Below, piece after piece: positions 15,638 through 36,145 of a DNA stretch of 64,000 nt. Position 1 is the stretch's first letter. Each line of letters starts with the position of its first letter. The notes beneath the pieces were generated by a model. The model saw only the letters and a list, made by a program, of their open reading frames with translations, made no database searches and was not told the DNA's origin. This stretch comes from Hyalella azteca (lineage: Eukaryota > Arthropoda > Malacostraca > Amphipoda > Hyalellidae). The position numbers were made by a program, and so were the translations under genes. The DNA is taken from the NCBI RefSeq assembly GCF_000764305.2, contig NW_025936571.1:310001-374000 (forward strand), given 5' to 3'.

Positions 15638-15789
15638 CTAGTCGACGTTGAGTTGGCGGAAGGATCCCTCAATGCCGAACAGGTCGGATGAAGTTTTGGG
15701 CTTGCCAGGCCTCTTGCTTTCATCCACCTTGTACTGTTCGTCCTCCTTCAGCCACTGCTTGCGTGCCTCGACTCTCTTCAGCCAGTGAC
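15638..15789 (-). CDS. CRAL-TRIO gene exon 6 (stop)
   Basis: Acceptor TTCTACAG. Completes Arg, then HWLKRVEARKQWLKEDEQYK and a tail SSDLFGIEGSFRQLNVD typical of arthropod family members, ending TAG at 15638-15640. Confidence 0.88.
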
Positions 15790-18700
15790 CTGTAGAAGAA
15801 CGTTATATTATCTTTATTTCATGCATGAATTTTTATCCTATCTGAAGTATCGATAGTCTGCAGCATCGACACAATAAAACAAATCGACAGTTACAAATTA
15901 TCTGCAGTTGATATAAAAAATATAGTACTAATAACTGTTATTAGGGGATATATTTTTATATATTAGGGGATATACTTGTTATTAGGGGAGATCAAAAAAA
16001 TATAACTCAGTACTCACTGCAGCGAGTGACAGAGAGCGCATTTTCTCGTCGACGAAAACTTGAAGTCATGGACGGACAGACGGACAGACAGACAGACGGA
16101 CGGACATGAATAGCACAATAGCGTCTTTTTTTCCATTAATGCGTTAAAAAGAAGAATTTGAAATTGTGAAATAGAAGCGCCTTGACTACAGTCTCTGAGC
16201 GCCACCCTTTGACATCCTATACCAAATTGAGCTCTTCATATAACATTCTAAAGATATTTTATTCGTATTCATTCATGTGTCTCATGTGAGAACCAAAAGA
16301 CCAAGCTTTGAGCATACAGTGTACTTCGCATCAAAACGCTGCCACTAGGTAATTACGTCATCTTCTCAAGGCCGTTAATACCGTTCATTTGAGAAATTTT
16401 TCACCTTGTATTCAATAAAAAAATATAACTCAGTACTCAGTACTCACTGCAGTGAGTGACAGAGAGCGCATTTTCTCGTCGACGAAAACTTGAGTTCACG
16501 GACGAAAAGACGGACAGATAGACAGACAGACGGACATGGCGAGCACAATAGTGCATTTTTTCCATAAATGAGAAAATGAGCTAAAAAGAAAACAGGTGAC
16601 ACTGACCGCTTCTTTTGAAGTTGGGAACCTTTTCCAAACCCGCGATTAGTCCAAACTTCACGAGTTGGTTCAGCAAAATAGGTTTTTTATAGTGGACATC
16701 TTTTCACTACAATGCAATGATATTTTCCACGATATGTTCTGAATAAGACAATAATAGCGCACAATACTTACGAGTTATGTCCTCTACGGTGCCGTTGGTC
16801 CCGCCGTATTCTTTAGGCAGCAGCGAAGGCGGGATATGCTTGTGCAAGCTACTCAGATCGCTGCCGTGGATGTGAATCTGTATGTAAAAATTATATTTAT
16901 TGAAACAATAAAGCCGTTCGGCCATCAGCAATAACAAAAAATATGAATTTACGGCAACAAAACTTTTCAAGACGTGCAACGACAACCACGTGTAGAGATC
17001 TTAAAGTAAAAATTAATGTTTTGAAATTTGCAAAACGAGTGAAGATTATGTCGGATATTTGTGTTGTGAAACGTCCCGAACAAGAAAAAATATAAATTAA
17101 ATTTAATGAGGATCCGTAAAAACAGAAGTGCACTGGCTGCTGCAAAAACAATGTTGAACCAAACCAACTTATTTCCCTTTAGCAAATAAATTTGCGGAGG
17201 TAAAAAAAATATACTGGCAACTGTATCAACAATCGAAAAAATATGATCTAAAATCAGAAAATAATACAACGGGATGAACAACTAAACAAATGAAGGTAGC
17301 GGATGCCATTAGGAAAAAATTTGGAGCCCCAAACAATACAGCTTCTGACACTAAAAAAATTCTGAAGATATGCAGCCCGAAAATGTACTAAGGCTTGCAG
17401 GCAAGATATGTAAAGTGGTATTTAAAAAATCGTTTCATGAAATAATTCATACATTTTTTATGCGTCTATGAGTTTTCATTTGCATTTCTGTTACTCGGTA
17501 CGTGGGAGAAAAATACATCCGCCAAACAATGTGAATTGAATAAATAATTACCACGTTTTTCTTAGCTCGCTTTCGTGTCTGTGATGATCAAATCTTGCAA
17601 TACTTAATTTCAATTTTGAATTCAACCACTATTTCTAATTATATCAGCAATACACTTATCAAATGTTCAATGAACCATCATATTCATCATATCAAGTAAT
17701 CACCAAACAATTAAATACATATGCGCCCCACATTTTTCGTTTTAGATGTTGTAAAATATTTTAACTGAAATACAAAAGACCAAGAGAATGAAAGCAAACA
17801 GAGATCAGTAGCTGCCGAAAAATTATTTTCTACTTATGAGTCCACATGAAAAACGTGGTCTTTAAAAATTTTTTTTATACATTTTATTAGATGTAATTCT
17901 CAATATCTTGTGCGTAAAGAAGTTACCGTCCGAAATATTTTTTGTCGTCTTTATTTGTAAGTTTTATCGATGTTTTCAGGTGGAAAAAAAATATTTGTTC
18001 TAAAAACATTCCTTCTCTTAAAAAAACTTATAAAACTAATGGATCAAACAAAGGAATCGACCTCCTAATTTCAACCGCAGGCGGAGAAATTAATGAACCT
18101 ATATTCGAGAGTATCACCCGCTCCTTCCTATTCTCCTTCACGAAAGACGTACCTCCTATAACACAGTGACATATCCCTTTCTCTATTTTATCATTCATGA
18201 AGGAATTCATAAGTTCCTAAATTTTTGCATCTTCTCCTTCATGAAAGACATCATATTTTACACAGTCTTACCCTCTTCTTCCTCTTCTCCTTCATGAAAG
18301 ACTTCCTATAATGTAACGACTCGCTCGCCCTCTTCTCCATCTTCTCCTTGATGAAAGACTTCCTATACTATAGCATTGACTCACCCTCTTCTCCATCTTC
18401 TCCTTACCTCTTCTTCATCTTCTCCTTCATGAAAGACTTCCTATACTATAGCAATGACTCACCCTCTTCTTCATCTTCCCCTTCGTGAAAGACTTCCTAT
18501 ATTGCAATGACTCACCCTCTGCTTCATCTTCTCCTTCATGAAAGACTTCCTATACTATAGCAATGACTCACCCTCTGCTTCATCTTCTCCTTCATGAAAG
18601 AATTCCTATACTATAGCAATGACTCACCCTCTTCTTCATCTTCTCCTTCATGAAAGACTTGAAGATGTTGAACACGGTGTCGAATGCTGCAGGAGTGTTG

Positions 18701-21700
18701 ATGTAGTGCAGGGCCTTCGGACGCATCGGGTAGCCATCCTACGGAAAACAGCCAAAATTTTGCAATATATTACAAAACAAAATATTAAATTCAGCCAGTA
18801 TTTTACAATATTTTATAGTGCACAATATTACAATACAATATTACAATTTGTTTTACAACATTTTACAATTCACAATATAGCAATTAAGCCTGTTTTTTAC
18901 AATATTTTATAATACACAATATAACAATACAAATTTATAGACACAGTTCTAAAAATTAAGTGCTCCATGTTACTTCATTTTTAAATAATGCAACTTTTCG
19001 AACGAAATGTCACCATTTTTTGTGAAACTACTCTAATTTTGAAGTGGTAAAATTAACTTCATTATGACATGCAAACAATTTTAAAATGGCGATCATTACA
19101 ATGAAATTATTCAAATAATATTATGATTTATTTTTCAATATCTATCAATTAGGAATTAATATATCAAAATTATATTAGAGATCAACTTATGTATACTTAA
19201 ATTTAATCATATAATAGAGAGCTTTCTATTCGCTCATTAATTTTTTCCTATTTTGTACCACATAGCGCATTGAAAGCAGATATTCTGAGCTGCAGATACT
19301 CGTGGCCATTTTAGCCAAGTTTTAAAGTCTATAAAATTCATTTCACTTAATCTCATGCTCGCTAAAGACCCTAAACTGGATTATAAAATTGAGCTTAAGA
19401 TCTAAAACGAATTAAAAGAAGTGCTGAACAAAAACTTTATCATATTTGTGATCCGAGAACCAGCATCTGCATTACCGCTTTTCTATATAGACTATTTCAG
19501 AATTCTACCTATGCACTATATAGAGCCTAGCACCAACATAGGCACTAGCTTCTGAAGACTTGAAACTGCTTTACTATACGCACGAGCGACAAGGCTCGGC
19601 ATTCTCACCAAATCTGAACGCGCACATCATTGCTAACGCAAAATAATAATTATTTCACGGTATGCAAGTGGTGATTAACAATATGAAAGCCTCCAATGTT
19701 TGTCAAATTAGAGATGAACTTCATCCATTATTGAAATAATTAACCATCATATGCGAGTGAAGTAGCATGAAGTTGTCATGTGAAGAACAACATGTTTGCG
19801 AGAGATGTAAATATTCATCTCTAAAAAATAAGATACGAGCTGAGACAATTATTAAAATAAAAAAATACGAGCTCAAATAAGATAAGAGATCAGACAATTC
19901 ATTCAGTATAAGGAAAATAAACACAAAACTGTCTCAAAAATTACGTGGCAAAATACCGCCAGATTAAAATTTGTAAAAACGTTACCTGGATAATGGTGGA
20001 CATTTTCTTAATAATGGGCGCGGTCATCTGCGCGACATGCGCGAAAGTGAGCCCTTGTACGTCAATGACCATATTGACCACGACCACCGAGACCAAGTCA
20101 TCCTCCTCGAGCAGCACGTCTAATACGGTATACATGCACCGCGTCATGTCCCCCACGGACGAGTTACTGGGATCACGGAGACCCGGCCGACCGATCATGA
20201 TCCGGGCCCCGTTCGGGGCCAAAGTCCCGGGCAAGGTAGGCACCAAAACCCTGATTGTCCCATGTTTGGTTTAAATTAAACCCTACGATTTTCCTACGCA
20301 GTCAATTCTCATCCTTCCATTGCGTTCTTTCGCATCATTTCAGAATCATACATTCGTTATTCATCGAAGTGGCTTACAATCTTTTGCTTCAAAATTGGTT
20401 CATAGAATCTGATTTGCATTAGATTTCGGTTAATTACCTTGAGAAGTATTACTCTAATTTTCATCTGATACTCGTATTCTCATAATTATGTTGTTTTTCA
20501 ACATTTTTTAAATACTGGCGAGTTTTTTCGTGAATCAAAGTAAAACTTCAACAATAGTGTTAGAGGAAAGCGTTGCTATACATAACTAATCGGAGCTCTG
20601 TTAATGATTCTCAATAATTTTTTTGAAAATTCTATGCATACTCACAATAAATTATAAATCTTAAAATTTAATGAAAACTGAGCTTTTTCGACACCGTTTA
20701 AATCTTCCGTTCCAAAATAAATGAGGAAAATTAATCTTGGAGAATTTTAAAATAAACGCATAAAATAATTTTTAAAATGCTAACAAGAAAATGATTGCGG
20801 ATGGAATAACAGCTCAACAAGAAACTCAAAAAAAACGGAAAGATGAGATTAAACAAGAGAAAATGATCAATTTATAGAGTAATGCCAAAGAAGACGTACT
20901 GAAACTGGAAATCTAAAGTAAACTGTACTCTCCAAATTACCTCCATAAAAACCGATTTTCTAAAACAATTCAACACCTTGAATGACATTTTACCTGATAT
21001 TTAGTTGCCTAATGTGAAATTATTGCGATACATTGCGGAAGCTCATCTCTGAACTTACAAGTGCACCACAAACCCTTCAGCAACTTGTGAAGTATATTAG
21101 AAAAAATATAACTCAGTACTCACTGCAGTGAGTGACAGAGAGCGCATTTTCTCGTCGACGAAAACGTGAAGTCACGGACGGACAGACGGACGGGCAGACG
21201 GACATGGCGAGCACAATAGTGCATATTTTCCATAAATGAGAAAATGCACTAAAAATGATTATCCCAAAATTACGCTATTCAGAAAGATTCCATTTCTTAA
21301 CTGAAAATGCGACTTAAATTGAGTTCACTCATTAATCCAAGCCGAAACTCAAAGAATGAAGTCAGCAAACGGAATTCAGCAAATATTAAAGTAAATAATA
21401 CAATAAATTAGACAAATTAGACAAATTCTCGACTTTCATTGAGCTCGTTCGTGCCATCGTTTCTTGTAAATGTTTCAGCGTCGAAATAGTTTCAAAATCA
21501 AAATCGGTTGGCCATCTACTTATGGCAGAGAGAATTTCATTCAGGAACGTACTGCGAATGAATCATTACAGATCGGTACGAAGTGGCATCTCTATCGGCG
21601 TGTTCTCCGCTCCTAAACAGCCGGCGCCCGAGGCAGGAATAATGAGCGTCACGCGCTTGTCGCACTTTTTTCCATAGTTGACGCTTAAATGAATGAGAAC

Positions 21701-24700
21701 GACACACACACTCTACTAAAGGAACAAGTATTTTAACAAACAAATTGCCATTCTCCCATGCTTTATTTCTATATTAAAGAAGGTCTTGCATATCTAAAAA
21801 AACTATATAAAAACAAACTGGTCAATAATGTTTCCAAGAGAACGGAAATGTTCATCAAATTTCAAGCGCTGTCACCATGCACTTTCGTTCCGAATATTAT
21901 TAAAGAATGCCATATATAATTGGTCGAATTACCACACACGTGCAACGCAGCCTCTAATATATTTCCAGAATTCTTGGGGACTACTGAGTAGGAAGGTTTT
22001 ACTATGGCGAGCAGTAAAGCAAAAAGTAATATGGTGAGCAGTGAAGCTAAGAACCTGGGCTCACCCTGTCCCTTCTGATGATACTACCAAGTGACTGCGG
22101 ACTGAACGGTAGACAACTCAAACGAACGGTTAACTGCTGAGAGTATCGCTTGTGTTTTGCGAGCAAGCAGCTATTGAGTCATTTCCAGCTTATTTTTTTA
22201 AGAGTGCACAGCTAAATATATGGCCCCCGTGACGACCATAACAACTAATGAGCAAGAGCAGGAGGCGTTTTTGGGCATATTTATCATGCGGATGACAGAC
22301 CTTCAAGATCGCAGTCCTCGTCCTTTCTCTGAGGCTGCAAAACGCCAATTTTTTTGTCGCTGTTCTGATGTTCGAGGCTCGGTCGTCTCAGAACGACGGT
22401 GTCATAAATTTGTTAAATGTTTCGTTAGAATTCGTTTTAAGCAAGCATATCAATTAATCTACATTAATACCCAGTTTGGAATTCTCGATGCGACCTAAGG
22501 CTGTCCTGCGCATGCTTACTCATTGGAACGTCGATTTCAGCCGCAAGTGCCATAGTAAAATAACATAACCCAGGAGTCTCATAAACCTCGCCATGCACGT
22601 AATATATCGTCAACGTTACCAGCAGGGTTAATTAACGGCGTTAATTTTTAAAATTACCCTCGCAGCGTAGTGATGTAACTCTCGGAAAAGGCAAAATCAA
22701 CGGAAAGAAGTTGGCACTCCAGTTACGAGGATTATTGACAATTAACATATACTGGTGATGAGACACCCCACACTAGTTCAAATTTCATGTTTAAAACATA
22801 GAAATTAAAAGTATCAAGCAGAAATTTCGGTACTGCGATTCCACTGCTCTATTTGTACCTGCATGAAAATGGCTGCCTTCATGGCGATAGTTGGTGTAAA
22901 AGCTGCCATGTGCGCTAACGTAGACCCTGCAGAGTCGTTGACTAAGACAATGCCTTTGATCGTCACTGACTCGTCTTCATATTCAAGTACATCGACGACT
23001 GTGGTGGCAAGACGCATGATATCGCTCATTGGGAAGCGATGCGGGTCAAATATTCCGAACCTTCCTAAAAGGATGGTCACGCCATCAGCAGTCTTCTGGG
23101 GCAGAGGCACGAATACGCTGCGGAGAAACGACCCTATTATGTCACCCTCCTTATTCAGTTGGTTATAACTCAGTATAAATGAAGCCTCACTATTTCATAA
23201 ATAGAACCAACCTACTAAAGAACAAAACAATCGCTAAAAGCAATATCAAAGGGAAAAGATGCTCCCATAATCCAAAATCGAATGGTTATTAAGAGGAAAA
23301 AAACGCAAAAAACGCTAACACCATGAAAAGCCGGAGACAGATAAAGAAGGGACCACAATAAAAGTGCACTCCAGTTTCCTCGAATGTCCCTAAATTTCTT
23401 CTACTTTATTGTTGTGGCGTTAATAAAGCCTTCAAGTTCTGAATAAAATCAGCACTAAGCAATCATTGAAACGAGGACCGTAACAAAGAGGAGAGTAAAA
23501 AAGAACAAAAAGAAATTGAAGAAATTAGTTGGGCAGAATTGGTTGTAAATGTAAAGGCATAGATTGAGAAGTTAAACTGCATACAAAATCCTTGATTTCT
23601 TCCGGGCAATCTCATTCTTCCTCATTCTACCCAAAAATGTTGACGGTTTTTTTAATGTAATCTAGCTATATGTATCTACAGTATATTCAAAGTTCATACT
23701 AGACAGGCAACGACAATTTCGTAGCGCAAATCAATTTTGCACTATTATTATTATTCATTGAACTACTATTATATTTTACTAAATTCGTATAAAACAAATA
23801 ATTTACGACAATCTTATACGGATTATCATTTGTACAAATTTTTGGGCAAATCATTTGCCCAAGTGACGACCGTTCAAAATTCTACAATGAACTTTGACAA
23901 TGAAACATCAGGATTAAATTGCAAGTCTAGCCCTGCAAATGAAGCCTCTTTCATCTACTTATTTCCTCGAACCTCTTTCAATTGAGCCTTATGATGCTAG
24001 GTCAATAACGACCCAAAGAAAAAAGTCTAATCAGGCACCATCGGATCAGGCAAAAAACTAAATGACAGACACATGGTTGTGCTCGTTTCTAAACTATCCT
24101 TATGAGGCCAGCAACCGGCATGACGTCATGCCTAGGTTACAAAACGTTATGCCGTTATTGCATGGTGTTATACTCAGGTGGCATGACGTACGGCATTAGC
24201 TACATAACGTTTTGCATTGCATTTATGTCATGGTTGCATGACGTTATGTCCTGGTTAAATGTCATTATGCTTTGGTTGTAACGTTATGCTTTGGTTGCAT
24301 TGCAATATGACTAGGTTACATGACGTTAGCCATGCCCTGAGGACATGACGTAATGCCTTGGCTCAATTACTTTATGCTGTGGTTGCATGCCGTTATGCCG
24401 TGATTGTACAACAACGGGGCTTAAACCCCATCATTAACTTCATTTCGAACCTCTTTTTTTCAGCCACACATAGAAGCGAACGCTTGTGTTCTCATAATAA
24501 TATTAGCCCCGTTATATCGTGATCTTCGTATCAAGCGATATTTTTTTACAGACATTGAATGATGTTAATAAAAATGAGATGATCATGTCAAAAATTAGTG
24601 GTCGTTTTTTAGGAAGCGCAACTCAGCGCTTCCTAGGCCTCTCCTTGACCGATGCAAATATAAATAATGTATCCACAATCTCAATGTGTATAAGGAATTA

Positions 24701-27700
24701 ATTAAGACATCAATTTAAATAGCCGCATATATGAATATAAATAATAAAGCTTCAAAGGCAACATGCCCTACCTGCCATAAAATCTTGTGCAGATTTCAGA
24801 TGCATTAATTATTTTATGTTTGAATAAAATACAGCTGCCGCAAAACATTATTTCCGATGTCAAAAGCTGCTCATATAAACGTAAATTTACTACCATAAAA
24901 AGTTAGACGGCAATTGCTACATTAGGAGGATCTGGATTTCAACACCACCGCACGAAATGTGAATTAATATCTTTAGATTGAGACGCCATATTTAATGCAC
25001 TGTCGCAATATCTTTGCTTCAGACGCGTAAATTACTCCTTTCAGATTGAGTAGACGCCCCTGCCACATGAGCATGCCTTCTAATTACAGCGCCGCCTTTA
25101 GACGCATAAGTTACGCCACCTAGGTTAAAGAGGCGCCCCTACCACACGACTACGTTCTCTGCTTCAAACGCCCTCTCTAGAAACGTAATTTATGCCACCT
25201 AGATTAAGGAGACGCGCCTGACACACGACTACGTTCTCTGCTTCAAACGCCCTCTCTAGAAACGTAATTTATGCCACCTAGATTAAGGAGACGCGCCTGA
25301 CACACGACTACGTTTTCTGCTTCAAACGCCGTCTCCAGACGCGTAATTTACGCCACCTAAATTAAGGAGACGCACCTGCCACACGACCATGGCTTTTTTA
25401 ACAAAAGCTGGCGTGAGCTGCATGGCGTGACCGGCAACCGCGCCTTGAATGTCGATCACTTGCACGATCCCCGTGACACTCCACTGCTCTTCCTCCTCCG
25501 CCATGACGCTCCCAATGAAATTCGAAGACTTCATCATGTCGTCGATGGAGTACTTGTTCGGGTCGTGAATTGCAGCGCGCACTATGATCACCTTGCAGCC
25601 CTTAGGGTCATGCCCATCCAAGGGTAGGGTAAAGCTGCACATGGCCATTTATTTTTACTAGCCTAGCATTCAAGAGGGTAGCTACTGTCTGAACTAACAC
25701 GTCAACCAATAAACGATTTTGTCCTTTTGCCAGAAAACCTTAAACTTTAGACCACTTTAGAGAAAACCTTAAACTTTACTCCACATTCAACAGGAATTAT
25801 TCTAACAAGGGATTTTTTATAAGTTAATTTTAATTGAGTACACAGGAATTTAAAAGCAAAGAAAACGCCAAGAAAATTCACCATATCGATATTGAAAACG
25901 TTTCGGAGTCCAGCTCCATCATCAGTTCGACTAAACTAAAAATGAATAAAATCACTTTAAAAGTCAAAATTCAAAGACAGACATAAAACCTAAACAAGAC
26001 CTAACATTATATCGAAATAAACAGGACGATATATCGATATGGTGAATTTTCTTGGCGTTTTCTTTGCTTTTAAATTCCTTGTGAACTTGCGATATAAGCA
26101 GACTAATGATATAAGTACTTGAGTACACAGTAAATGCAGTTCTTTTGAGTCATTTTTCATAAACTTTTAATGCATGGATTATCTCAAGAATGTTTTTATA
26201 GGGAAGATTTTATCAACACAATAAGTGTTGATCATTGGTTTGATCAGCATGAAGGTAGAATTGACGAAGTAAATACGGTGATTAAAAGATAAACGTCATT
26301 TGATTGTTGGTTTAAAAAGTAAAGTATTCACTCCTTAGTATATAAGAGCTCAGATGTTCGAAAATTTTTCATTAGCATTTACTTTTTCTGACCTCACTGA
26401 TGGGAAGGCTAGTCAATGGTTACACAAAATCCTTTGTGACAAGGAAGTTATAAACAGAGTTAGTAAATACGTACAACTTCACAAGAGTCAAATTTGCTGA
26501 ACTACAACGGAGAAGTAATTTTTGAGGAAAAAGCTATGCAAATAATTGAAAAATGAATCCAGATAGAAGTTTTAAATTGCAGAGCTAGAACAAACTATTT
26601 TAAAGCGATTATTTTGCGTGTGTAAGTCAGACTCCCCTTATCTTTTGCTGCTAGCAAAATACCACACATAAATGTAAGCCGACACATCGCAAACGAATAC
26701 AAACCAACTCGAACCACAAGACGGAAATAACATTAATATACTGAGAAAACAACTTTCTTTTATTAGGCCCAAAATAATTTTTTAATAGCGTAGTTTATTC
26801 AGAAGAAAATTATCATTGCATTAATAAATTTAATCAAATTTTAATAATCAAGCAAAAATTTTGCTATCAGCTCATCAATAAAAATTATTTTTCCTCATTG
26901 ATAGAGTTCGTCTATAATCCGGTAATTTCGTCTACAACTTGATCACGGTACGTTGCGTTTAAATTGTCCATCGCCAAAAATTTCTCTTTTTCCTGCAACC
27001 TAACACTACCCAAAGCGCAGCTTGCAATTCTGAAAAAAACTCTCATTAATCCTTTTTAGCGCATTTTCTCATTTATGAAAAAATGCACTATTGTGCTCGC
27101 CATGTCCGTCTGTCCGTCCGTCCGTCTGTCTGTCCGTCTGTCTGTCTGTCCGTCTGTCTGTCTGTCCGTGACTTCACGTTTTTGTCGACGAGAAAATGCG
27201 CTCTCTGTCACTCACTGCAGTGAGTACTGAGTTATATTTTTTTAGAAATTGCACACGTGTTGCGCGATGCTGGCTAGAAATGTCGTTTGCCGTACTGCGC
27301 GCTCGCACTACAGAATCTTGGCAGAAATTATTCACTATTGTAGGTGCCAAAATTTTACAAACCATTGACACTTTTAATGTAGATGCGGACATTCTTTCAT
27401 TGTATCTTTGTTAGTCGAAAGATGAATACATCAATTGTAAGCCGTATTTGTGTAAAAGCAACATTCTATGAGGCGTTTTTTAGAGCAAGTACCGCTTTGA
27501 CATAAAAAGCAACAAGTAAAATTTTCTTCATTTGAAAGTCCATAGTTTACTCCTCTGCATAATTATCGTTAATACTGAGGTATTACCGTAAATATCGTAT
27601 CTTGAGACCAGCTTTTGAATGTCATAGTCATAGAAGCTTGCCGCCTGATTAGACAACCTAATTGGACAATTTTGTAAAGAATACTTCGAGAAACAGCTGG

Positions 27701-30700
27701 AAAGTTTTCAGCTAAATTCTAAATCGTGAATCATCTGTTTTCATTCATGTTACAGTTCGCCTTCTACATCAGATTATATCGGGAATGACTGACGGTCTCC
27801 CACCGCATCACATTTGTGCGGTTATCTCTAAATGCCCTAGCCAATTTCCGCACCATTCTATCACTCATAACCTGTTCACCGTACACTTCATTCATTAGGT
27901 AATGAATGAACTAATTTGAAGTCTTGAGCACAGTGATCAATTTGAAGCCAAGCTTGAGCACAGTGATAAGCACGCACTTTGCAGTCGACGGGTTTCTCGA
28001 TAGGCGGAGAGCATTATAAAATCACGTAAACAGATATAAGCGGGGCCCAATGGTTCCATAATGGCGTCTGTGGCTTCCCAACAGATGTAGCTAGAAGGAG
28101 CGCATACGATAAACGGCAGCAGGTGCTGTGGCAGCGCAATTTAAAAACGGTACTTACTCTGCAACAGGCCTTTTATTTTACACAAGTAGTAGTAGTAGTA
28201 GTAGTGGAATGGTATGCTAGTGCTTCAGCTATCAAGCTATTTCGCACCGAAGGTCAAAATATAACATCGCCAAAGAGGCGGAAGGTCTCAATTATTCAAA
28301 ATCTAAAGTTAATCATCATCCACAAAGGGCGGAAAGTCTCAGATGTCCAGCCCGCTGCAGCTGGCTCGAAGGAAATAGCGTTAGCATCTCAAAGAGACGT
28401 AGTTACAGGTTTAAAGCAACAGAAACTGGCACTCGAACATGAGGTCGCTTACACAGGAAGTCGGCCGCCCGCACGAGAGAGACAGAGAAAGGAAATGTAA
28501 GGAATCCTACCTACATAATAACTTAATGCAAGGAACCCTACCTACATAATAACTTAATGTAAGGAATCCTACCTACATAATAACTTAATGTAAGGAATCC
28601 TGCCTACATAATAACTTAACCCCACAACTGAGACCTGCAGTCAGACACCGCGAGCTCAGCGGTGGGGCGCTCAGGAACAATCCCCCTAGGAGCGCGAAAT
28701 CCCATAGGACTTTGACGAGCACAGACACACGTCAGAAGTCCCCTATGAGGGGTATTTTGCACAATACGATCTAACCTGCATGAGAACGAGAGACTTTTTC
28801 GCCAGGGCAGGAGTCATCTGCAACACATGAGCGCCGGTCATTCCAGAACAGTCGATTATTTCTGCCAATCCGGCAATGGACATCTGTTCGCATTCGTCGC
28901 TCATGATGTCGAGGATGAGGAGAGCAGCCTTCGTAACGTCGTCCATGGAGTTTTTATGTGCATCGTAAGCTCCCATGCGACCCAGGATTAAGATAGTACC
29001 GTTGGGGTGAGGGGTTGGTAAGGGGAGGAACACACTGCAAACGAAAAAATGGGCCGCGGGCTCAACGAATTTCATTTTGAAAAGCCGCAAATTTGCACTC
29101 GCGAAATTGCGGATGTAGAGCGGATGTCTGCTTAGAATATTTTAACTGTGTTGTATGAGCGAGAATAAAAATTTCTGCATGTTTTTTGGCAGAATTAGCT
29201 CACTTATGGGACTGGAAACCTTTGAAAATCCAATAATCTGTAGCCTTGTGTTTTTTAAATAAATTTTATATCGAATTTAGATAAACTGGGAAACAGAAAT
29301 TTTTACTTCAAATATATAAAGCTTAGCAGTATTTACGTATCATAAACCTTGAATTACAATTCATCTACGGAGATGAAGTGTCAATTAGTTATGCAATGCA
29401 CCTGAAAGAATTATACGTGGGATGATCCTCGGGTATATTTCGAATTTTCAATCTCATCGTCGCAAACAGCAATTTCAATGCAAATCGTTGCAAATTAAGG
29501 TGATTTAAAAATGAAAAGTTATACCAAAAGTATTCAAATCAGTTAGCTTTGTGTTTCAAACGAAAAATTTGTAGAAACATAATAGATCCATTGATGTACA
29601 ATATCAGTTCACCCCAAAAAAACAGTCCTGAAGAATGAATAGATGAATCAAGCGGAATAAAGCTACCCGAATATAAAATTTCTTACAAAAATCAAATAGA
29701 TTGGAAGCTCGTGATCAATAGAAAAAGTATTAATAAACCTGGAAAATTCCCGGAAAAAGAAGAGTAAAATTATGAATCAATAAGAATTAATTTCCAAAAC
29801 CTAATTTTTAAACCTCTCTACAACTTAACAGCTTTAATTTAACCTTCTATAACGCTTGCCAGAAAGTATACTTTCTTAATAACATAAAACAGACGTCGGA
29901 AAATACACATGAAATTTAAAATCAATTGCGACCACCGAAAGCGACTTCAAATTTGGTAATAAATTTTGGAAACCATCAATTTCCTAGTAAACTGTAAATA
30001 GAACCTTGAATTGAACTCAACTCGTGACACGACACGAATACACGCAACGTGTACCAAAATTACACCAAACGTGTATCAGAATTATAATTCTGATACACAA
30101 CACTTATAATTCCGATACACCAACCGTGTATCAGAATAGTAAGTGTTTTGCTTCAGAATTACACGCCACGTCGAAAATTACGCACAATGAATTGCCGAAT
30201 TACTCGCAATGTGTTCCAGAATTGCACATAACTTATTCATGATCCACACTCAATGTGCTTAGGAATTAGACCCAAAGTGTTGCAGAGTTACAGCCCACGT
30301 TTTCCAGAATAACTGGCACTGTCTTCCAGAACAGCACCCAATGCACTCGAAAATTACAAGCAACGTGTTCCAGAATGAAACGCATAGTGTTCAAAAATTG
30401 CATGCAATATCTTCCAGAATTACGCGAAACGTGTGCCAAAGCAACACTAGCAACATGTTTCAGAATCATACGAATTGTGCTTGACAATAACACGAAACGT
30501 GTACCATAAAAGCACGCAACCTGTACCATAATAACACACGACCTGTACCATAATTACACGCAACGTATTCAAGAATTATGCGCAGCTGTACCATAATAAC
30601 ACGCAATGTGTACCATAAAAACACGCAACCTGCACCGTAATTATACGCAACGTATTCAAGAATTATGCGCAGCTGTACCATAATAACGCGCAATGTGTAC

Positions 30701-33700
30701 CATAACAAAACGCAACCTGCACCGTAATTATACGCAACGTATTCAATAATTCTACGCAACGTGCAACGAAAGTATACTTAACGTTTCCCGTGATTTTCTG
30801 TGATGAATTTCAGAATTACACAGAACGAAATAACCGCGACGTGTTCCAGAAACACTTGACAAGTACGACAAGCTGGACCATCGCGTACCCGCGAGAACAG
30901 GGCCTGGAATGCCAGTTTACAGTCTCAATTAATGACTGGGACCTTTTCTTACTCGGCGCTCATACACTTGCGGATTCCGAGTCACTCCAGAGCTGCTTGC
31001 GTCCTTTTCGCGCATAAAATGCGTGCGTTTCAAACTGTTGACATGGTTGGCATTACTTTCACATGAGGAAGCATCTTTAGTGAATGATGCATCGTACGAA
31101 AAATTAACAATGTTAACAATGTGTAGCCATCGGTTAAAAAACCGGACCACCGGTTTTCATAACATGTTGCATATATTATATTAAATTAAATCAATCAAAT
31201 GACTTCGAAGGGATGTGTGTAGAGTGACATGGCATAGATTTGTGAGGGTGTGCGTCTAAGACATTTAGAGATTTGCTTAGTTTGACATCGAAGAAAATTT
31301 CATGGTGAAAAATCGAGGAGGTTTTTGAGTTTTTGGGGAGAGACATCGAAAAGATTTCTCCTGCGATATCTTGGAAATATTTTTTTATGTGAGAAATTGA
31401 AAGGAATTTCGTGGATGAATATATAAGGAATTTGTACAGAGCGCTATCAAAAATATTTTTGAGTATGACATAAAAAGAAGTGTAGAGAGAAGCATATTAA
31501 CTATTGGTACGAAGAGACGAGAAAAGAGATCTTGAATAGTTCGTGTTGAATACAGAGAACATCATCGATCTTTGCGATCGATATCAGTTGATCAAAGTAA
31601 CAGTCAAGTATTTGTACCTACAGTGGGAATGATAAAGAATTAATAATCATTCCGATGGCAGTTTTGTGTTGATTTTATGCGACTATCAGATTATATATTT
31701 GAGAGATCCAAAAATCCAAACCGTGCTATCTTCAACTCGGTAGCACTAATGTTAATTAAAGATTACTATCAAATATCAAGGGCTCTTCTCACCAAAGTGC
31801 CAAATAGCTTAAAATTAAGTTCTGAATGCTATTCACTGAATAATAAGTCGCGCAAAAATCAAATTTCAGGGAATCTGACCTGCCAAACCGTCATGGCTTT
31901 TTTGGCAACGGCCGGAGTCATCTGAAGATTGTGCGCCAATGAACCTCCCGCCATGTCAAGGATTTGGGTGAAGCCAGTAATTGACAAAGTCTCAATCTCA
32001 TCGCACATGATATCGGAAATCATGTGAGTTGCTTTGAACACTTTTTCAATGCCCGTTGTATGGGGGTCGTGTCCGCAGGTTCTGATGATCACTATTTGGC
32101 GGCCTTGCGGATCAAGATCCGGGAGAGGCAGAAACAGACTGCAACAGATCAAATCGTGTTCTCAGTTACGGGTCAGTGTCAGTTAAGAGTTGCATGAACT
32201 GTAACGTATCTCATTTTAATTTCAGATTACGGGTTGAACTCGTTTAATGTTTCTGCATTGTGTAGCAACACAATTTATTGTGTTGATGTTATGTTTCAGT
32301 TGATTCAGTTCAGAGTTCGGGCCAGATTCAAAGACGTAGCACTTTGGTGAGAATTATGTGCAACAGCGTAATAGAATATGTTTCCATGTTCAGTCCAGTG
32401 TCTGCTAGATGAGATGAAGCGATTAATTAAATTTTATTCAACAAGCTCAATCAATTAAAAAGTTTAAATCTTATTCCAGTTGCAAATCAGTAACACATCT
32501 CGTAGAGATACGAATAAATTTACTTTTCCAATTCCTCGTGGAAGCAATTAATATTTTAAAATCAAAAGAGAAATTCGAAATTTTTCTCTTTTTTACGGGT
32601 GAAATGAAACATGCTCATGCAACGAAAATTCATAAAATCCTATATACAAGGTGGTCAATATTTATCGTTGAAAACTCAAATTTTTTTTCGCGGAATGACA
32701 CCTAATTAAAGATTGAGTAACACGAGTGAAATACAACTGTATATTAAATATATGATTTGTAGCAAAAATATTCACAAAATTCGCTTTCGATTGAAGTCAA
32801 TGGAAAGCAGGACAGACTACAGAAGTGACAAAATGCGCGTGCTTTGACATACAAGACCATTTGAATATCTTCAATAGATTCGCCTGTTCAAAAATTTGCT
32901 TTCGTTTATTTACAATTGCAGGTATAGTTAATTTTCCATTTTTAATAAAAATATTCGTTATATAGCTTCAGAAGTCATTTTACACTGGAAAATTATCAAA
33001 ATAAAACACTTTATTAAATCAATTGAAGCGATGTAAGCGATAAATGTAGATCACCCTGTACATTAGGACGATATCGAGTTCACGAATTATATCAAATTGT
33101 TCAACAAACATCGATTATGAATTGATAAAACCATGGTTCATCCGAACTTTTTCATGCGTCGCAAACAACATTGAAAGAGCGCTCCAGTTGAAGATTAAAA
33201 GCTTGAGTTGCTTTATTTAATTATTTTAATTTTTTAATTAAAAAAACTCGCCAGTCATTTAATTAAATTTTTAATCAATGAGATTTAGTGATTATAGCTA
33301 GGAGTCGTATGCACTGGTTTCGAAAATTTTCTATATCAAAATTTTAATTTTCAAATTTTCACTTACAAAATCTCAATTTAAACACCATGCAAGGTTTGCA
33401 TTAGATCTACTAAAAAGAGCAACGATTTTTTGCCACAGCTTCTCTTACATTTTTTGCACACATGTTTCACTATTATTTTGGATGTACTCATTTTTCAACT
33501 CAGATCATTTAATTCAATTATCAAGATGCGATGTGCTTCACACGCACCAAGCTCTGTTTCTTATACAGAATATTCAATCAGTTTTATTCACAGAATAAAT
33601 TCAGTTACATTCGCAGGATACGTACAATTTCATTCGCCGGATGCTTTCAGTTTCAATTGCAGAATGCTTCAGATTTCATTGAAATGAGGGGTTCAGTTTC

Positions 33701-36145
33701 ATGCAAAGTATTCGTTCAGTTTCGTATACACTATACATGATTCATTTGGTATTGTACACGTGTTACATCAAGTTTCATTTATTGCAGACATTCAGTTTGA
33801 TAAAATTTGAAGTAAAAAATCGTCAAGTTTAAATATTTAAATTTGATTTTTACACTCAGCCACATCAAATAAATTATGAGGGGTATAGATAAGAATATAA
33901 ATGAAGAAATACAAGGAAAAGCTACTTTGGTTCATTAGAGAGTATGATCATTAGAGTATGTGATGTTATCCCAAAAAATCATCGCAAACGATTTTATTAC
34001 AAATACAGGAAACAAACAACGCGCAATTTCATACTAATGACGTTGAGGTAATTCAAAGCTTAATCTAGTTTTTGTTCATCAATCAGTGTGGGAACTTTTA
34101 GTTCGTTTATTTTCATGATCTTTGGTAATAACATACTGCCATATCAAACACAATCAACAAATTGGATTTCATAATTTAACTTGAATAGGACAAAAAAATT
34201 GGTGCCGTTGTTATAGTGAAATGAATGTCAGCCTTTTGGTTCGGTTATTCATATCCAACGCCTTCGTATGAGTTGAGTGAATATATTAAATGATAAAGCA
34301 AATATGATTGGGTAAATAATTAAAAATAAATAAAGCACCCAGACAGTGTAGAAAATTACATGCGTGTACAGCAACATACCCCATCAGAATTAAACAGCTC
34401 TAATATTCATATACATACAGACGGCAAACACCAACAATTATGACAGATACACAGTAAAGCTCAATATACGCAAGTAATTGTTTTAAAACAGAGGAAATAC
34501 ACGAGTGTCTTCGTGTCATTATGGGCACAGAAATAAAAAATAAACGTAAGGAGTTTCAAAATGCATAAATAAACTCTGAAATTATTTTAAAATATCATAT
34601 TTTTCATCGCTATTAGCCAAAAATAAGCAAAAAATAAATTGAAGCTCAGATTTCGTTTAAATCGAGATTTTTGAGAAATAAACTATGTAACAAAAATTTA
34701 ATCAGTATTTCCGAACAATAATAATTTCTAATAGACTAAGAAAAAATGCAAACTCACCCCATCTGCAAAAGTTCGCGCATTTTCGGTTCGTCAGGATCGC
34801 GGTTCGCGAACCATTCTGGAACGGCGGTCTTACATGTGTAGAACATGTCCATTTTCTCTTTGGTTCTCTCCAAGGAGAACTTGCAGCCTCTCAAGAAGCG
34901 AAGAATGTTCCAATCATCTGCCAGAAAAATTAATGAAAATCAAGTATCACGACGCTTGAGAATTTAATCGAAAGAAATTTATTTCCAAAAGTTAAGCCTT
35001 TCGTGACTGACAGGACTTGTCGGTTCCAAATACCACTAGGTACGAATACCATAGACGACGGTAAATGTATCCAAGATGAAAGGGTTCAATTCTATTCTTA
35101 CTCAAGTTTCAAGTTATCATCTGATCGCCCCACCGAAAGAAATCGCTTTCTACGATAATGAAACTATTGAAAGCAGTTCCTTCAACATAGTTAATATATA
35201 ATATTCCCAAATAAATTTCAACTCGTCTATCCACCACTGATGCCTGTGATTCATTTTCATGTCTTTATTTTTGAGTTGACTAAAAATCAATTATTTACCG
35301 CCAATGGGAGCATATTTTTATTGAAAATCATTAAAGGGTTAAGGGATTATAATCCGTCAGAATCGCAGCCCAATAAATATTTTTATTTATATTAATTTTT
35401 TAAAATAAAACAAAATAAATTTATGATGAGAGAATTTAAAACTTGGACTTTCCCTGTGATGTTTAAAAGAGAATGTTTTCAAGTTCATAATTTGAAATAG
35501 GATCTTGATGATGGAAGCCTAGGTGACGGCATTCAGTTTGGAATGATTGAGTCATACAAATTCTAAACTGTTATTGCATCTCTATAGGACCTGTGTTTGA
35601 TAACTCAATATAAACTTTGACTCAACAGTATTTATGTTGACGTACCCATCCTAGCGTTGATATGAGGCTGCTTCTTGAGCCTGCATCTCTATAGGATCTG
35701 TCTCTGATAACTCAATATAAACTTTGACTCAACAGTATTTATGTTGATTTACCCATCCTAGCGTTGATATGAGGCTGCTTCTTGAGCCTGCATCTCTATA
35801 GGATCTGTGTTTGATAACTCAATATAAACTTTGATTTTACAGTATTTCTGTTGACGTACCCATCCTAGCGTTGATATGAGGCTGTTTCTTGAGCCTGCAT
35901 CTCTATAGGTTCTGTGTTTGATAACTCAATATGAACTTTGATTCCATAGTATTTATGATCGACGTACCCATCCTAGCGTTGATATGAGGCTGCTTCTTGA
36001 GCCACTTCCTGATGGCGTCGATGTCCTCCTGACGACGAGCTGGGTCCTCATTAAGCTCATCCTTAGCCTGCTGCTGCAGCTCGGGGCTCAGCGTGCAAAC
36101 GTACTTCTCGTACTTCTCCGGCATCCTGTAAGATCCAGGGCCCAT
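15638..36145 (-). CDS. CRAL-TRIO lipid-transfer protein with five alternative exon-3 cassettes
   Basis: Complete minus-strand gene: exon 1 (35968-36145), exon 2 (34758-34917), one of five exon-3 cassettes, exon 4 (18628-18738), exon 5 (16772-16877) and exon 6 (15638-15789). It yields about 314-323 aa, the usual size for alpha-tocopherol-transfer-protein/Sec14-like proteins. The CRAL-TRIO N-terminal helices carry the DDWNILRFLRGCKF motif; the domain then has GVFLPLP, DGYPMRPKALHYINTP and IHIHGSDLSSLHKHIPPSLL in family order, ending ELFGIEGSFRQL-like. Such cytosolic proteins bind a hydrophobic ligand (tocopherol, retinoid, phosphoinositide). The ligand here is unknown, and the cassette would set much of the pocket. 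Confidence 0.88.
15994..16150 (+). mobile_element. Palindromic dispersed element, copy 3
   Basis: First palindrome reads ACTCACTGCAGCGAGT; 3' end shortened to ATTAATGCGTTAAAAA. Confidence 0.85.
16416..16587 (+). mobile_element. Palindromic dispersed element, copy 4
   Basis: Full copy with an extra 8-bp CAGTACTC duplication at the start. Confidence 0.85.
16772..16877 (-). CDS. CRAL-TRIO gene exon 5
   Basis: Acceptor TTTTACATACAG, donor GTAAGT; phase 0 in, 1 out. Reads IHIHGSDLSSLHKHIPPSLL, then PKEYGGTNG, the canonical CRAL-TRIO end (LPxEYGG). Confidence 0.88.
18170..18660 (-). repeat. Tandem array derived from exon 4 edge plus donor
   Basis: Roughly eight units of about 55-58 bp run downstream (minus strand) of exon 4. 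Each carries the last codons of exon 4 (CTTCATGAAAGAC and CTTCTTCATCTTCTCC as read on the plus strand) and most keep the donor (plus GACTCACCCT). Units next to the exon are nearly identical; distal ones decay and have lost the GT. Confidence 0.8.
18628..18738 (-). CDS. CRAL-TRIO gene exon 4
   Basis: 37 codons, phase 0/0; acceptor TTTCCGTAG, donor GTGAGT. Reads DGYPMRPKALHYINTP, then FKSFMKEKMKKR, the conserved segment after the cassette. Its 3' end plus donor is repeated many times in the following intron. Confidence 0.88.
19986..20250 (-). CDS. Exon 3e cassette (longest, most diverged)
   Basis: 265 nt (two extra codons), acceptor CAATCAG, donor GTAACG. Reads VLVPTLPGTLAPNGARIMIG, then VIDVQGLTFAHVAQMTA, ending STIIQ. 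The run LVSVVVVNMVIDV is unusually Val-rich. Phases match the other four cassettes. It is nearest to exon 4. Confidence 0.82.
20251..22858. other. Intron between cassettes 3d and 3e
   Basis: Contains one copy of the palindromic dispersed element (21100-21255). A short open frame at 22220-22498 matches no family I know. Otherwise AT-rich. Confidence 0.4.
21100..21255 (+). mobile_element. Palindromic dispersed element, copy 5
   Basis: Full copy with a short GACGGACA core. Confidence 0.85.
22859..23117 (-). CDS. Exon 3d cassette
   Basis: 259 nt, acceptor CTCCGCAG, weak donor GTACAA. Reads VFVPLPQKTADGVTILLGRF, then VNDSAGSTLAHMAAFTP, ending IFMQ. The DxxG(x)SxAH region is retained but more diverged. 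Confidence 0.82.
24110..24415. repeat. Degenerate GGTTGCATGACGTTATG repeats
   Basis: About ten variants of GGTTGCATGACGTTATG at spacings of about 25-35 bp, in the intron between cassettes 3c and 3d. Confidence 0.6.
24980..25375 (-). repeat. Tandem array derived from exon 3c edge
   Basis: About five units of about 77 bp, each with a copy of the exon 3c 3' end and donor region (CCTGACACACGACTACG and AAACGCC blocks, plus strand). In the decoys the donor has become GCGCGT or GGGCGC, so it is inactive. Confidence 0.75.
25376..25634 (-). CDS. Exon 3c cassette
   Basis: 259 nt, acceptor ATGTGCAG, donor GTGCGT. Reads FTLPLDGHDPKGCKVIIVRA, then VIDIQGAVAGHAMQLTP, ending AMVVWQ. Its 3' edge and donor have seeded a tandem array at about 24980-25375. 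Confidence 0.85.
25841..26090. mobile_element. MITE with ~50-bp inverted repeats
   Basis: Near-perfect inverted arms (GGAATTTAAAAGCAAAG at left, CTTTGCTTTTAAATTCC at right), each running to ATATCGATAT, around a loop of about 140 bp. TTGAGTACACAG occurs at 25834 and 26119, possibly a flanking duplication. The loop side carries a hammerhead-like core at 25900-25926. Confidence 0.7.
27053..27245 (-). mobile_element. Palindromic dispersed element, copy 6 (minus)
   Basis: Full inverted-orientation copy with a long CCGTCTGTCTGTC core. Confidence 0.85.
27600..27990 (-). pseudogene. Decayed mariner-type transposase (HTH region)
   Basis: Minus-strand frames read IHYLMNEVYGEQVMSDRMVR, then GGRPSVIPDII in a shifted frame, then FPAVSRSILYKIV after stops. 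These match the helix-turn-helix region of mariner (Mos1/SETMAR-like) transposases in order. Frameshifts and stops show it is dead. It lies between cassettes 3b and 3c. Confidence 0.65.
28090..28470 (+). pseudogene. Possible transposase HTH remnant
   Basis: An open frame reads VLTLQQAFYFTQ, then a Val run from a (GTA)n microsatellite, then ASASAIKLFRTE and TSPKRRKV, resembling the N-terminal HTH of mariner-like transposases. No DDE region seen. Weak call. Confidence 0.3.
28500..28622. repeat. 31-bp tandem repeat
   Basis: Four near-identical copies containing CCTACCTACATAATAAC, about 150 bp beyond the exon 3b donor. Confidence 0.75.
28625..28735. repeat. Dispersed repeat (CTCAGGAACA family), copy 1
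   Basis: Shares GAGACCTGCAGTCA and CGCTCAGGAACA with 53662-53725, and the later CCATAGGACT part with about 56770-56840. Confidence 0.5.
28776..29034 (-). CDS. Exon 3b cassette
   Basis: 259 nt, acceptor TTTGCAG, weak donor GTTAGA. Reads VFLPLPTPHPNGTILILGRM, then IIDCSGMTGAHVLQMTP, ending LVLMQ. Same phases as the other cassettes. Confidence 0.85.
30020..30785. repeat. Degenerate minisatellite with higher-order structure
   Basis: Variants of ACGCAACGTGTACCATAAT repeat about every 25-30 bp. At 30530-30750 a larger unit of about 104 bp (with ATGCGCAGCTGTACCATAAT) is itself repeated. Lies in the intron between cassettes 3a and 3b. Confidence 0.7.
31880..32138 (-). CDS. Exon 3a cassette (CRAL-TRIO core)
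   Basis: 259 nt, acceptor GTTGCAG, weak donor GTCAGA. Reads LFLPLPDLDPQGRQIVIIRT, then ILDMAGGSLAHNLQMTP, ending AMTVWQ. Phase 2 in, 0 out, so it joins exon 2 and exon 4 in frame. It is the most 5' of five homologous cassettes and close to the family consensus. Confidence 0.85.
32645..33060. mobile_element. Tc1/mariner-type MITE
   Basis: Terminal inverted repeats CAAGGTGGTCAATATTTATC (left) and the inverted form ending AGATCACCCTG (right), each flanked by TA, as for TA-inserting elements. About 412 bp, no ORF. Confidence 0.65.
33550..33800. repeat. Degenerate ~30-bp repeats
   Basis: Variants of ATTCAGTTTCATT with GCAGAATG recur about eight times. No gene. Confidence 0.5.
34758..34917 (-). 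CDS. CRAL-TRIO gene exon 2
   Basis: Acceptor TTTTTCTGGCAG, donor GTGAGT. Starts by completing Asp (G+AT) to give DDWNILRFLRGCKFSLERTK, the CRAL-TRIO N-terminal signature, and ends MRELLQMG with the Gly codon split after GG (phase 2). Confidence 0.88.
35581..36005 (-). repeat. Tandem array derived from exon 1 edge plus donor
   Basis: Four units of about 107 bp, each including about 36 bp of exon 1 end (GCTAGGATGG in minus sense) and its donor. Plus-strand GACGTAC occurs at 35639, 35853 and 35961, with GATTTAC at 35746. The decoy donors keep GT. Confidence 0.85.
35968..36145 (-). CDS. CRAL-TRIO gene exon 1
   Basis: Encodes MPEKYEKYVCTLSPEL through KKQPHINARM and ends in phase 1 at donor GTACGT. 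The first in-frame ATG is at 36145 (MGPGSYR), but those bases fall in a MITE terminal repeat. The ATG at 36124 follows CTTACAG, an acceptor, and gives the family-like start MPEKYEKYVCTLSPEL; I favour it, with a separate 5' UTR exon upstream. Confidence 0.8.

What the first reader, a model, noticed from the sequence alone, without database searches (positions are those of the whole stretch)
19986..32138. Five-member mutually exclusive exon array in a CRAL-TRIO lipid-transfer gene
Seen: five minus-strand exons (31880-32138, 28776-29034, 25376-25634, 22859-23117, 19986-20250) encode alternative versions of the same 86-88-residue CRAL-TRIO segment. I see no extra copies of exons 1, 2, 4, 5 or 6 between them. 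Each cassette has AG before it and GT after it and fits exon 2 and exon 4 exactly. Known: this segment holds much of the CRAL-TRIO hydrophobic pocket. Inference: one gene makes at least five proteins with different pockets, in the manner of Dscam or Mhc exon clusters. I do not know of such an array in this family.
Basis: partly seen in the sequence, partly recalled or inferred. Interest (0 to 1): 0.88.

Follow-up and report, generated by a model that had tools for sequence, protein, structure and literature searches.

The report
Swappable lipid-pocket exon array in crustaceans
One crustacean gene for a fat-carrying protein holds five interchangeable versions of the exon that builds most of the lipid pocket, and shrimps, crabs, crayfish and lobsters show the same pattern of variants, so one gene can probably supply several carriers with different cargoes.

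Summary
The window is from the amphipod Hyalella azteca. One minus-strand, six-exon CRAL-TRIO gene (36124-15638) carries five alternative third exons; no other full copy of the remaining exons lies in the window. All cassettes share phases (2 in, 0 out) and length 1 mod 3, so skipping or doubling destroys the frame. The B and D products are letter-for-letter NCBI isoforms X4 and X5; E's cassette is in X6. A and C were not seen as Hyalella proteins. In 12 malacostracan species, annotated isoforms share identical flanks and differ in this block. Trees place Hyalella cassettes among decapod ones and reject a Hyalella-only origin (p-AU 1.5e-12), so the array is probably ancient. A paralogue in the same genome has a single 259-nt exon 3. 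On alpha-TTP numbering the cassette covers residues 100-184: 12 of 22 ligand-contact residues and 77% of published van der Waals contact energy; the gate helix and four PIP-contact positions lie in constant exons. Pocket sites diverge more than other sites between cassettes (p=0.0007) but not within orthologue groups. Eight paper searches that bear on it showed no description. Untested: RNA reads, the exclusion mechanism, ligands.

The parts
35968..36124 (-). exon 1, coding part from ATG at 36124, donor GTACGT, phase 1
   Evidence: NCBI isoform X4 begins with it
34758..34917 (-). exon 2, constant, donor GTGAGT, phase 2
   Evidence: genome search
31880..32138 (-). exon 3 cassette A, 259 nt, 86 aa
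   Evidence: groups with decapod, stomatopod and krill cassettes (support 93/90); no Hyalella protein with it among the listed hits
28776..29034 (-). exon 3 cassette B, 259 nt, 86 aa
   Evidence: spliced product identical to NCBI isoform X4
25376..25634 (-). exon 3 cassette C, 259 nt, 86 aa
   Evidence: in the A/C clade; no protein match
22859..23117 (-). exon 3 cassette D, 259 nt, 86 aa
   Evidence: spliced product identical to NCBI isoform X5
19986..20250 (-). exon 3 cassette E, 265 nt, 88 aa
   Evidence: present in NCBI isoform X6
18628..18738 (-). exon 4, constant; holds the positions of the alpha-TTP gate helix and of four PIP-contact residues, donor GTGAGT
16772..16877 (-). exon 5, constant, donor GTAAGT
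15638..15789 (-). exon 6, constant, ends at stop TAG

Best explanation
This is a cluster of five mutually exclusive third exons in one arthropod alpha-TTP/PINTA-like CRAL-TRIO gene of Hyalella azteca. Each mRNA takes one cassette between constant exons 2 and 4 (borne out for B and D by identical NCBI protein models and for E's cassette by a shorter model; inferred for A and C). The cassette builds three strands and the helices that hold most ligand contacts, while constant exons supply the N-terminal helices, the gate helix and the main phosphoinositide-contact positions (by alignment to alpha-TTP). The gene therefore makes one transfer chassis with exchangeable pockets (inferred). Products with no cassette, or with two, lose the reading frame (shown) and would be removed by nonsense-mediated decay (inferred). 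The array arose by tandem duplication of an ancestral single 259-nt exon 3 before amphipods and decapods, and probably stomatopods, separated (inferred from trees).
For: Exact splice sites, phases and lengths; single-copy constant exons; isoforms X4 and X5 identical to the B and D products, X6 with E; in 12 species, 91 of 111 same-species isoform pairs have an identical C-terminal part, and in 10 of the 12 species every pair shares at least 103 identical residues up to the cassette (exceptions are Hyalella X6, which lacks exon 1 and shares 55, and Homarus pairs between two loci, down to 30); 156 of 168 protein pairs with both flanks at least 93% identical have cassettes under 65% identical (biased by 90% clustering); full or nearly full open frames on 1.0-1.8-kb contigs, too short to hold kilobase introns, for several cassette types (species unknown); tree and AU test; single-cassette paralogue; pocket mapping and divergence test; alpha-TTP-like models for isoforms with B and E.
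Against: No RNA reads could be examined; NCBI X-numbered isoforms are computed models (recalled). No Hyalella protein with cassette A or C was seen. The scan for a docking site paired with selectors found nothing clear. A and C could be rarely used or silent. Isopod relatives look like separate genes rather than one array. Oratosquilla X3 has a shortened block. Phe165 and Phe169 of alpha-TTP, discussed as membrane-contact residues in PMC4487086, lie in the cassette, so the split between pocket and membrane surface is not clean.
Confidence: 0.88

Rival explanations
1. A tandem array of whole CRAL-TRIO genes whose other exons are diverged or missing from the assembly.
For: In the butterfly Heliconius melpomene most genes of this family lie in tandem (PMC5739039, passages). 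Other CRAL-TRIO genes exist in this genome.
Against: Sensitive searches find no other full copy of exons 1, 2, 4, 5 or 6 in the window. NCBI isoforms join different cassettes to identical flanks.
Confidence: 0.03
2. Only some cassettes (B, D, E) are used; A and C are dormant exons kept by chance.
For: No Hyalella protein with A or C among the listed hits.
Against: Both are open for 86 codons with intact splice sites and keep the positions shared by all five. A groups with blocks of annotated decapod and stomatopod isoforms and of proteins on short contigs.
Confidence: 0.15
3. The cassettes are alternative but all isoforms bind the same ligand; the variation is drift or serves only dosage or localisation.
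For: The fold is predicted unchanged for the two isoforms modelled. No binding data exist here.
Against: Pocket positions differ more than other positions between cassettes (0.826 against 0.571, p=0.0007) but not within orthologue groups (0.412 against 0.375, p=0.33), as expected if specificity differs and is then kept.
Confidence: 0.15
4. As a mechanism for the exclusivity (it does not compete with the best explanation): competing RNA pairings between one docking site and cassette-specific selectors, as in Dscam1.
For: Inter-cassette introns of 2.3-3.1 kb make steric exclusion by short introns unlikely, and no donor fits the U12 motif. One window at 19578-19601 beats three shuffles on the weakest of its four pairings (-23.2 against -22.7, -22.4, -21.4).
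Against: By mean pairing energy the same window does not beat all three shuffles (-24.4 against -25.3, -24.3, -23.9), and the upstream intron gave nothing better than shuffles. No second genome was available to test covariation.
Confidence: 0.35

Closest known systems
Dscam1 exon 4, 6 and 9 clusters (arthropods)
   Same: Tandem homologous internal exons, one chosen per mRNA between constant exons, old within the clade (PMC8042237, passages).
   Different: A CRAL-TRIO lipid carrier instead of a cell-surface receptor; one cluster of a few cassettes; no docking site demonstrated.
Muscle myosin heavy chain (Mhc) exon clusters
   Same: One gene does the work of a gene family by swapping segments (PMC3912159 and PMC2257972, search listing and start of abstract only).
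   Different: Swaps parts of a motor, not a ligand pocket.
alpha-TTP, CRALBP and PINTA CRAL-TRIO proteins
   Same: Same family and fold: alpha-TTP is the best PDB match by sequence and by structure.
   Different: No exon-swapping form of these appeared in the paper searches (most listings capped).
Butterfly CRAL-TRIO domain gene expansions
   Same: Same family, diversified by tandem duplication (PMC5739039, passages).
   Different: Whole genes are duplicated there; here only the pocket exon is.

Membership tests
Mutually exclusive exon cluster (criteria of Pillmann et al. 2011, PMC3228551, passages) | two or more neighbouring internal exons surrounded by further exons | tested here: met
   five cassettes between e2 and e4
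Mutually exclusive exon cluster (criteria of Pillmann et al. 2011, PMC3228551, passages) | similar length, same splice phases and reading frame, homologous sequence | tested here: met
   259, 259, 259, 259 and 265 nt, phase 2 in and 0 out, 28-44% identity
Mutually exclusive exon cluster (criteria of Pillmann et al. [quoted passage not shown]
   annotated isoforms hold one block each (Oratosquilla X3 has a shortened one of 45 residues); the skip and the A+B product break the frame, and all five cassettes have stops in the frame that a preceding cassette would impose; no reads available
Mutually exclusive exon cluster (criteria of Pillmann et al. 2011, PMC3228551, passages) | not part of tandem gene duplicates | tested here: met
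   constant exons single-copy in the window and in the scored genome hits apart from a gene on another contig and two partial matches
CRAL-TRIO (Sec14-like) lipid-binding family | match to PF00650 above the curated cut-off | tested here: met
   102.9-117.9 bits for all 5 isoforms against a cut-off of 22.6
CRAL-TRIO (Sec14-like) lipid-binding family | binds and transfers a hydrophobic ligand | not testable with these tools
   needs purified protein
Dscam1-type docking-selector exclusivity | docking site complementary to a selector near every cassette | tested here: inconclusive
   no clear excess over three shuffles in either flanking intron; no second genome to compare
Steric or U12-type exclusivity | introns between cassettes too short, or incompatible U2 and U12 sites | tested here: not met
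   inter-cassette introns 2258-3141 nt; 0 of 9 donors match the U12 motif (motif recalled)

The most novel reading that the evidence does not exclude
Malacostracan crustaceans carry an ancient pocket-swapping gene: one nearly invariant lipid-transfer chassis whose ligand-lining core is exchanged by splicing among several deeply diverged cassettes (five here, up to seven seen in one crayfish), each tuned to a different lipophilic cargo such as vitamin E, retinoids, carotenoids or lipid hormones. It would be a repertoire of small-molecule specificity made by mutually exclusive splicing, kept since before amphipods and decapods separated.
Probability: 0.6. Interest if true: 0.8.

Novelty: new member of a known kind. 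Interest (0 to 1): 0.66.

Why it matters
The best-known large exon arrays diversify adhesion receptors, motors or channels (recalled). Here the swapped block is the ligand cavity of a lipid carrier, while the gate and the main phosphoinositide-contact positions stay fixed. That gives a natural experiment in specificity: isoforms identical outside 86 residues, with related cassettes in crabs, shrimps and amphipods, so pocket residues can be tied to ligands directly. It also offers a contrast within one family: butterflies expand it by duplicating whole genes, malacostracans by duplicating one exon. Hyalella is a standard toxicity-test animal and several of the decapods are farmed (recalled), so carriers of vitamin E, carotenoids or lipid hormones would have practical interest.

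Tried and rejected
Tandem whole genes: rejected, constant exons are single-copy. Chance open frames: rejected, five mutually homologous exons with identical phases. Extra hidden cassettes: none found with two profiles. Steric exclusion and U12 incompatibility: not supported. Docking-selector pairing: 287 and 130 windows of the two flanking introns against four inter-cassette introns, repeats masked; best weakest-of-four energies -20.7 (upstream) and -23.2 (downstream) against shuffles -21.9, -22.9, -24.8 and -22.7, -22.4, -21.4; best mean energies -22.4 and -24.4 against -24.8, -23.9, -25.4 and -25.3, -24.3, -23.9; left open. Splice-site strength was only eyeballed and not used. A search with cassette C alone gave 5 candidates and no match. 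Other arrays in this genome: 10-kb stretches around 7 other CRAL-TRIO places plus L001 and L002 showed at most one cassette-like exon each at E 0.01 or less. Pfam scan of four other long open frames of the window: no family. Papers: ten searches were made; eight bear on this array and two were for other matters (27 for pocket residues, 70 for serpins). None of the listed papers describes it by title or abstract start, but five of the eight listings were capped (20 of 223, 20 of 462, 20 of 547, 15 of 1,726, 10 of 357) and the library lacks most subscription journals, so absence in print is not shown. Corrected on checking: I first counted seven Scylla cassettes, but P0124 has the same cassette as P0054, so there are six; a notebook entry gives cassette identity as 23-50%, which were counts out of 86, the percentages being 27-57% apart from recent duplicates.
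Full report
WHAT IS THERE. The window is a stretch of contig C1732 (310001-374000) of a 519-Mb assembly. The B splice product is letter-for-letter an NCBI protein named alpha-tocopherol transfer protein-like isoform X4 of Hyalella azteca, on a 607,013-base contig, so I take the organism to be this amphipod. The gene lies on the minus strand: exon 1 35968-36124, exon 2 34758-34917, cassettes A 31880-32138, B 28776-29034, C 25376-25634, D 22859-23117, E 19986-20250, exon 4 18628-18738, exon 5 16772-16877, exon 6 15638-15789 with stop. The five possible products have 314 (A-D) and 316 (E) residues, and all five score 102.9-117.9 bits against the Pfam CRAL_TRIO model, cut-off 22.6.

WHY EXACTLY ONE CASSETTE. 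Every cassette enters in phase 2 and leaves in phase 0, and its length is 1 mod 3. Leaving the cassette out, or splicing A to B, gives an early stop before exon 5 is reached, and each of the five cassettes contains stops in the frame that a preceding cassette would impose (frame 0). Introns between cassettes measure 2258-3141 nt and 0 of 9 donors fit the U12 motif, so short-intron steric exclusion and U2/U12 incompatibility do not fit. A scan for docking-selector pairing showed nothing clear above three shuffles. How the choice is made remains open.

ONE GENE, NOT A ROW OF GENES. Constant exons occur once in the window as full exons. In the whole assembly the assembled protein matches this locus (all five cassettes and exons 1, 2, 4, 5, 6), a diverged gene on contig C2178, and single pieces on C1909 and C4027 (21 candidates scored, so a lower bound). 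A Pfam-model search shows further CRAL-TRIO places on other contigs (17 matches in all). The C2178 gene has the same six-exon layout in 3.1 kb and a single exon 3 of 259 nt between AG and GT with the same phases, which shows what such a locus looks like without the array. Nine other CRAL-TRIO places looked at, this one among them, held at most one cassette-like exon each.

SUPPORT FROM OTHER SPECIES. The searches found 683 and 892 proteins and listed 120 each, 130 distinct. In 12 malacostracan species (Hyalella, Penaeus vannamei, Eriocheir, Cherax, Procambarus, Palaemon, two Macrobrachium, Scylla, Homarus, Panulirus, Oratosquilla) at least two annotated isoforms have identical sequences before and after this block and different cassettes. 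In ten of the twelve every pair shares at least 103 identical residues right up to the cassette; the others are Hyalella (X6 starts at exon 2, 55 shared) and Homarus (two loci or haplotypes, down to 30 shared between them). The part after the cassette is identical in 91 of 111 pairs; the other 20 are 8 Homarus pairs between the two loci and 12 Scylla pairs in which one model has another C-terminus after exon 4. Cassettes are 27-57% identical, apart from two crayfish pairs at 80-81% and one Scylla pair with the same cassette. Oratosquilla X3 has a 45-residue block. Distinct cassettes per species ran from 2 to 7 (7 in Procambarus, 6 in Scylla), lower bounds because the database is clustered at 90% identity and the lists are capped. 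Among all listed pairs with both flanks at least 93% identical, 156 of 168 had cassettes under 65% identical and 1 had 90% or more; clustering hides near-identical pairs, so this ratio is biased upward. Against: no Hyalella protein with cassette A or C was among the listed hits, and proteins of Armadillidium and Periplaneta differ in the flanks too, as separate genes would.

AGE. In a tree of 91 cassettes over 86 columns (midpoint-rooted), cassette E falls with 19 decapod and 1 unnamed cassettes (bootstrap 99, SH-aLRT 96); A and C fall in a clade of 22 with decapods, a stomatopod, krill and isopods (93/90, below the tool's mark of 95 for bootstrap); D falls in a clade of 35 (93/91); B stands alone. 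Forcing the five Hyalella cassettes together costs 106 log-likelihood units, p-AU 1.5e-12. So the E class, and with less support the A/C class, appear to predate the amphipod-decapod split. The alignment is short, and the tool warns that many forks cannot be resolved.

THE POCKET. The cassette aligns with residues 100-184 of human alpha-TTP. Of 22 ligand-contact residues named in PMC3496730 (Table 3 and text; passages read), 12 fall in the cassette. Of the summed van der Waals energy with alpha-tocopherol for the 20 residues with a value, 28.19 of 36.67 kcal/mol (77%) is in the cassette (Leu218, 0.03 kcal/mol, did not match in numbering). Ala156, whose change to Leu shifts selectivity in that paper, lies in the cassette and is Q, E, Q, L, M in A-E. 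The gate helix (198-217) and PIP-contacting Lys190, Arg192, Lys217 and Arg221 (PMC4487086, passages) map to constant exons, where all four stay basic. Arg59 and Arg68 also map to a constant exon but align with Cys and Glu here, and Phe165 and Phe169, discussed there as membrane contacts, map to the cassette, so the division of labour is not perfect. AlphaFold models of the B isoform (mean pLDDT 91.7) and of X6 with cassette E (83.2) are both closest to alpha-TTP (5mue, E 7.6e-21 and 7.7e-16; TM-score by target length 0.93 and 0.87).

SPECIFICITY SIGNAL. Using 54 cassettes of the 12 species over 86 columns, same-species pairs (107) differ at 82.6% of pocket sites and 57.1% of other sites (12 against 74 positions, one-sided p=0.00066). 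Within seven hand-picked groups (137 pairs from 43 cassettes) the figures are 41.2% and 37.5% (p=0.33). Against non-pocket hydrophobic positions (28) the excess stays (p=0.015). Limits: the groups were read off the tree, some have weak support and group E is part of an unresolved fork; cassette E was cut to 86 columns by removing two inserted residues; blocks of other lengths and the P0124/P0126 models were left out; pairs are not independent; and the pocket was mapped from a protein about 30% identical. This supports differing ligands but does not prove it.

LITERATURE. Eight searches that bear on the array listed no paper on exon arrays in this family; five of the eight listings were capped. 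NCBI's annotation already lists isoforms, so the proteins are public though I found no description. Against the published criteria for mutually exclusive clusters (PMC3228551, passages), the architecture criteria are met; the transcript criterion is met by annotated models but not tested on reads. The finding is a new member of a known kind, unusual for where it sits and what it swaps.

Noticed in passing
window 35575-36003, 25107-25387, 18228-18660: Minisatellite arrays start inside the 3' ends of exon 1, cassette C and exon 4 and repeat the exon end with its donor region (in the consensus of C's array the donor reads GC). 3 of 9 donors and 0 of 9 acceptors of this gene lie in tandem arrays, which cover 13.6% of the window (binomial P=0.11); suggestive only.
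   Followed up: partly
L003 / L009 (G000:C2178:234677-237801): Paralogous gene with the same six-exon layout and a single 259-nt exon 3, in 3.1 kb.
   Followed up: yes
P0069, P0070, P0071, P0074, P0077, P0080, P0091, P0125 (Armadillidium): Isopod relatives, five of them with blocks in the A/C clade, differ in the flanks as well, as if isopods lost the array or use separate genes.
   Followed up: partly
P0020 (Hyalella X6): The annotated E isoform starts at the ATG that opens exon 2, lacking exon 1, which hints at another first exon or an incomplete model.
   Followed up: no
P0108, P0124, P0126 (Scylla paramamosain): Isoform models with another C-terminus directly after exon 4, possibly intron read-through.
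   Followed up: no
window 4205-8497 (+): A 1431-codon open stretch that looks rich in Ser, Thr, Pro and acidic residues; not searched.
   Followed up: no
window 42858-43772 and 47839-48411 (+): Open stretches with membrane-like segments that look by eye like exons of a transporter gene; no Pfam match.
   Followed up: partly
P0046 and P0121 (Lepidoptera): Unusually long relatives (497 and 565 residues), perhaps fused tandem genes.
   Followed up: no
window 19578-19601 (-): Best candidate pairing window in the last cassette intron; beats three shuffles on one measure and not on another.
   Followed up: partly
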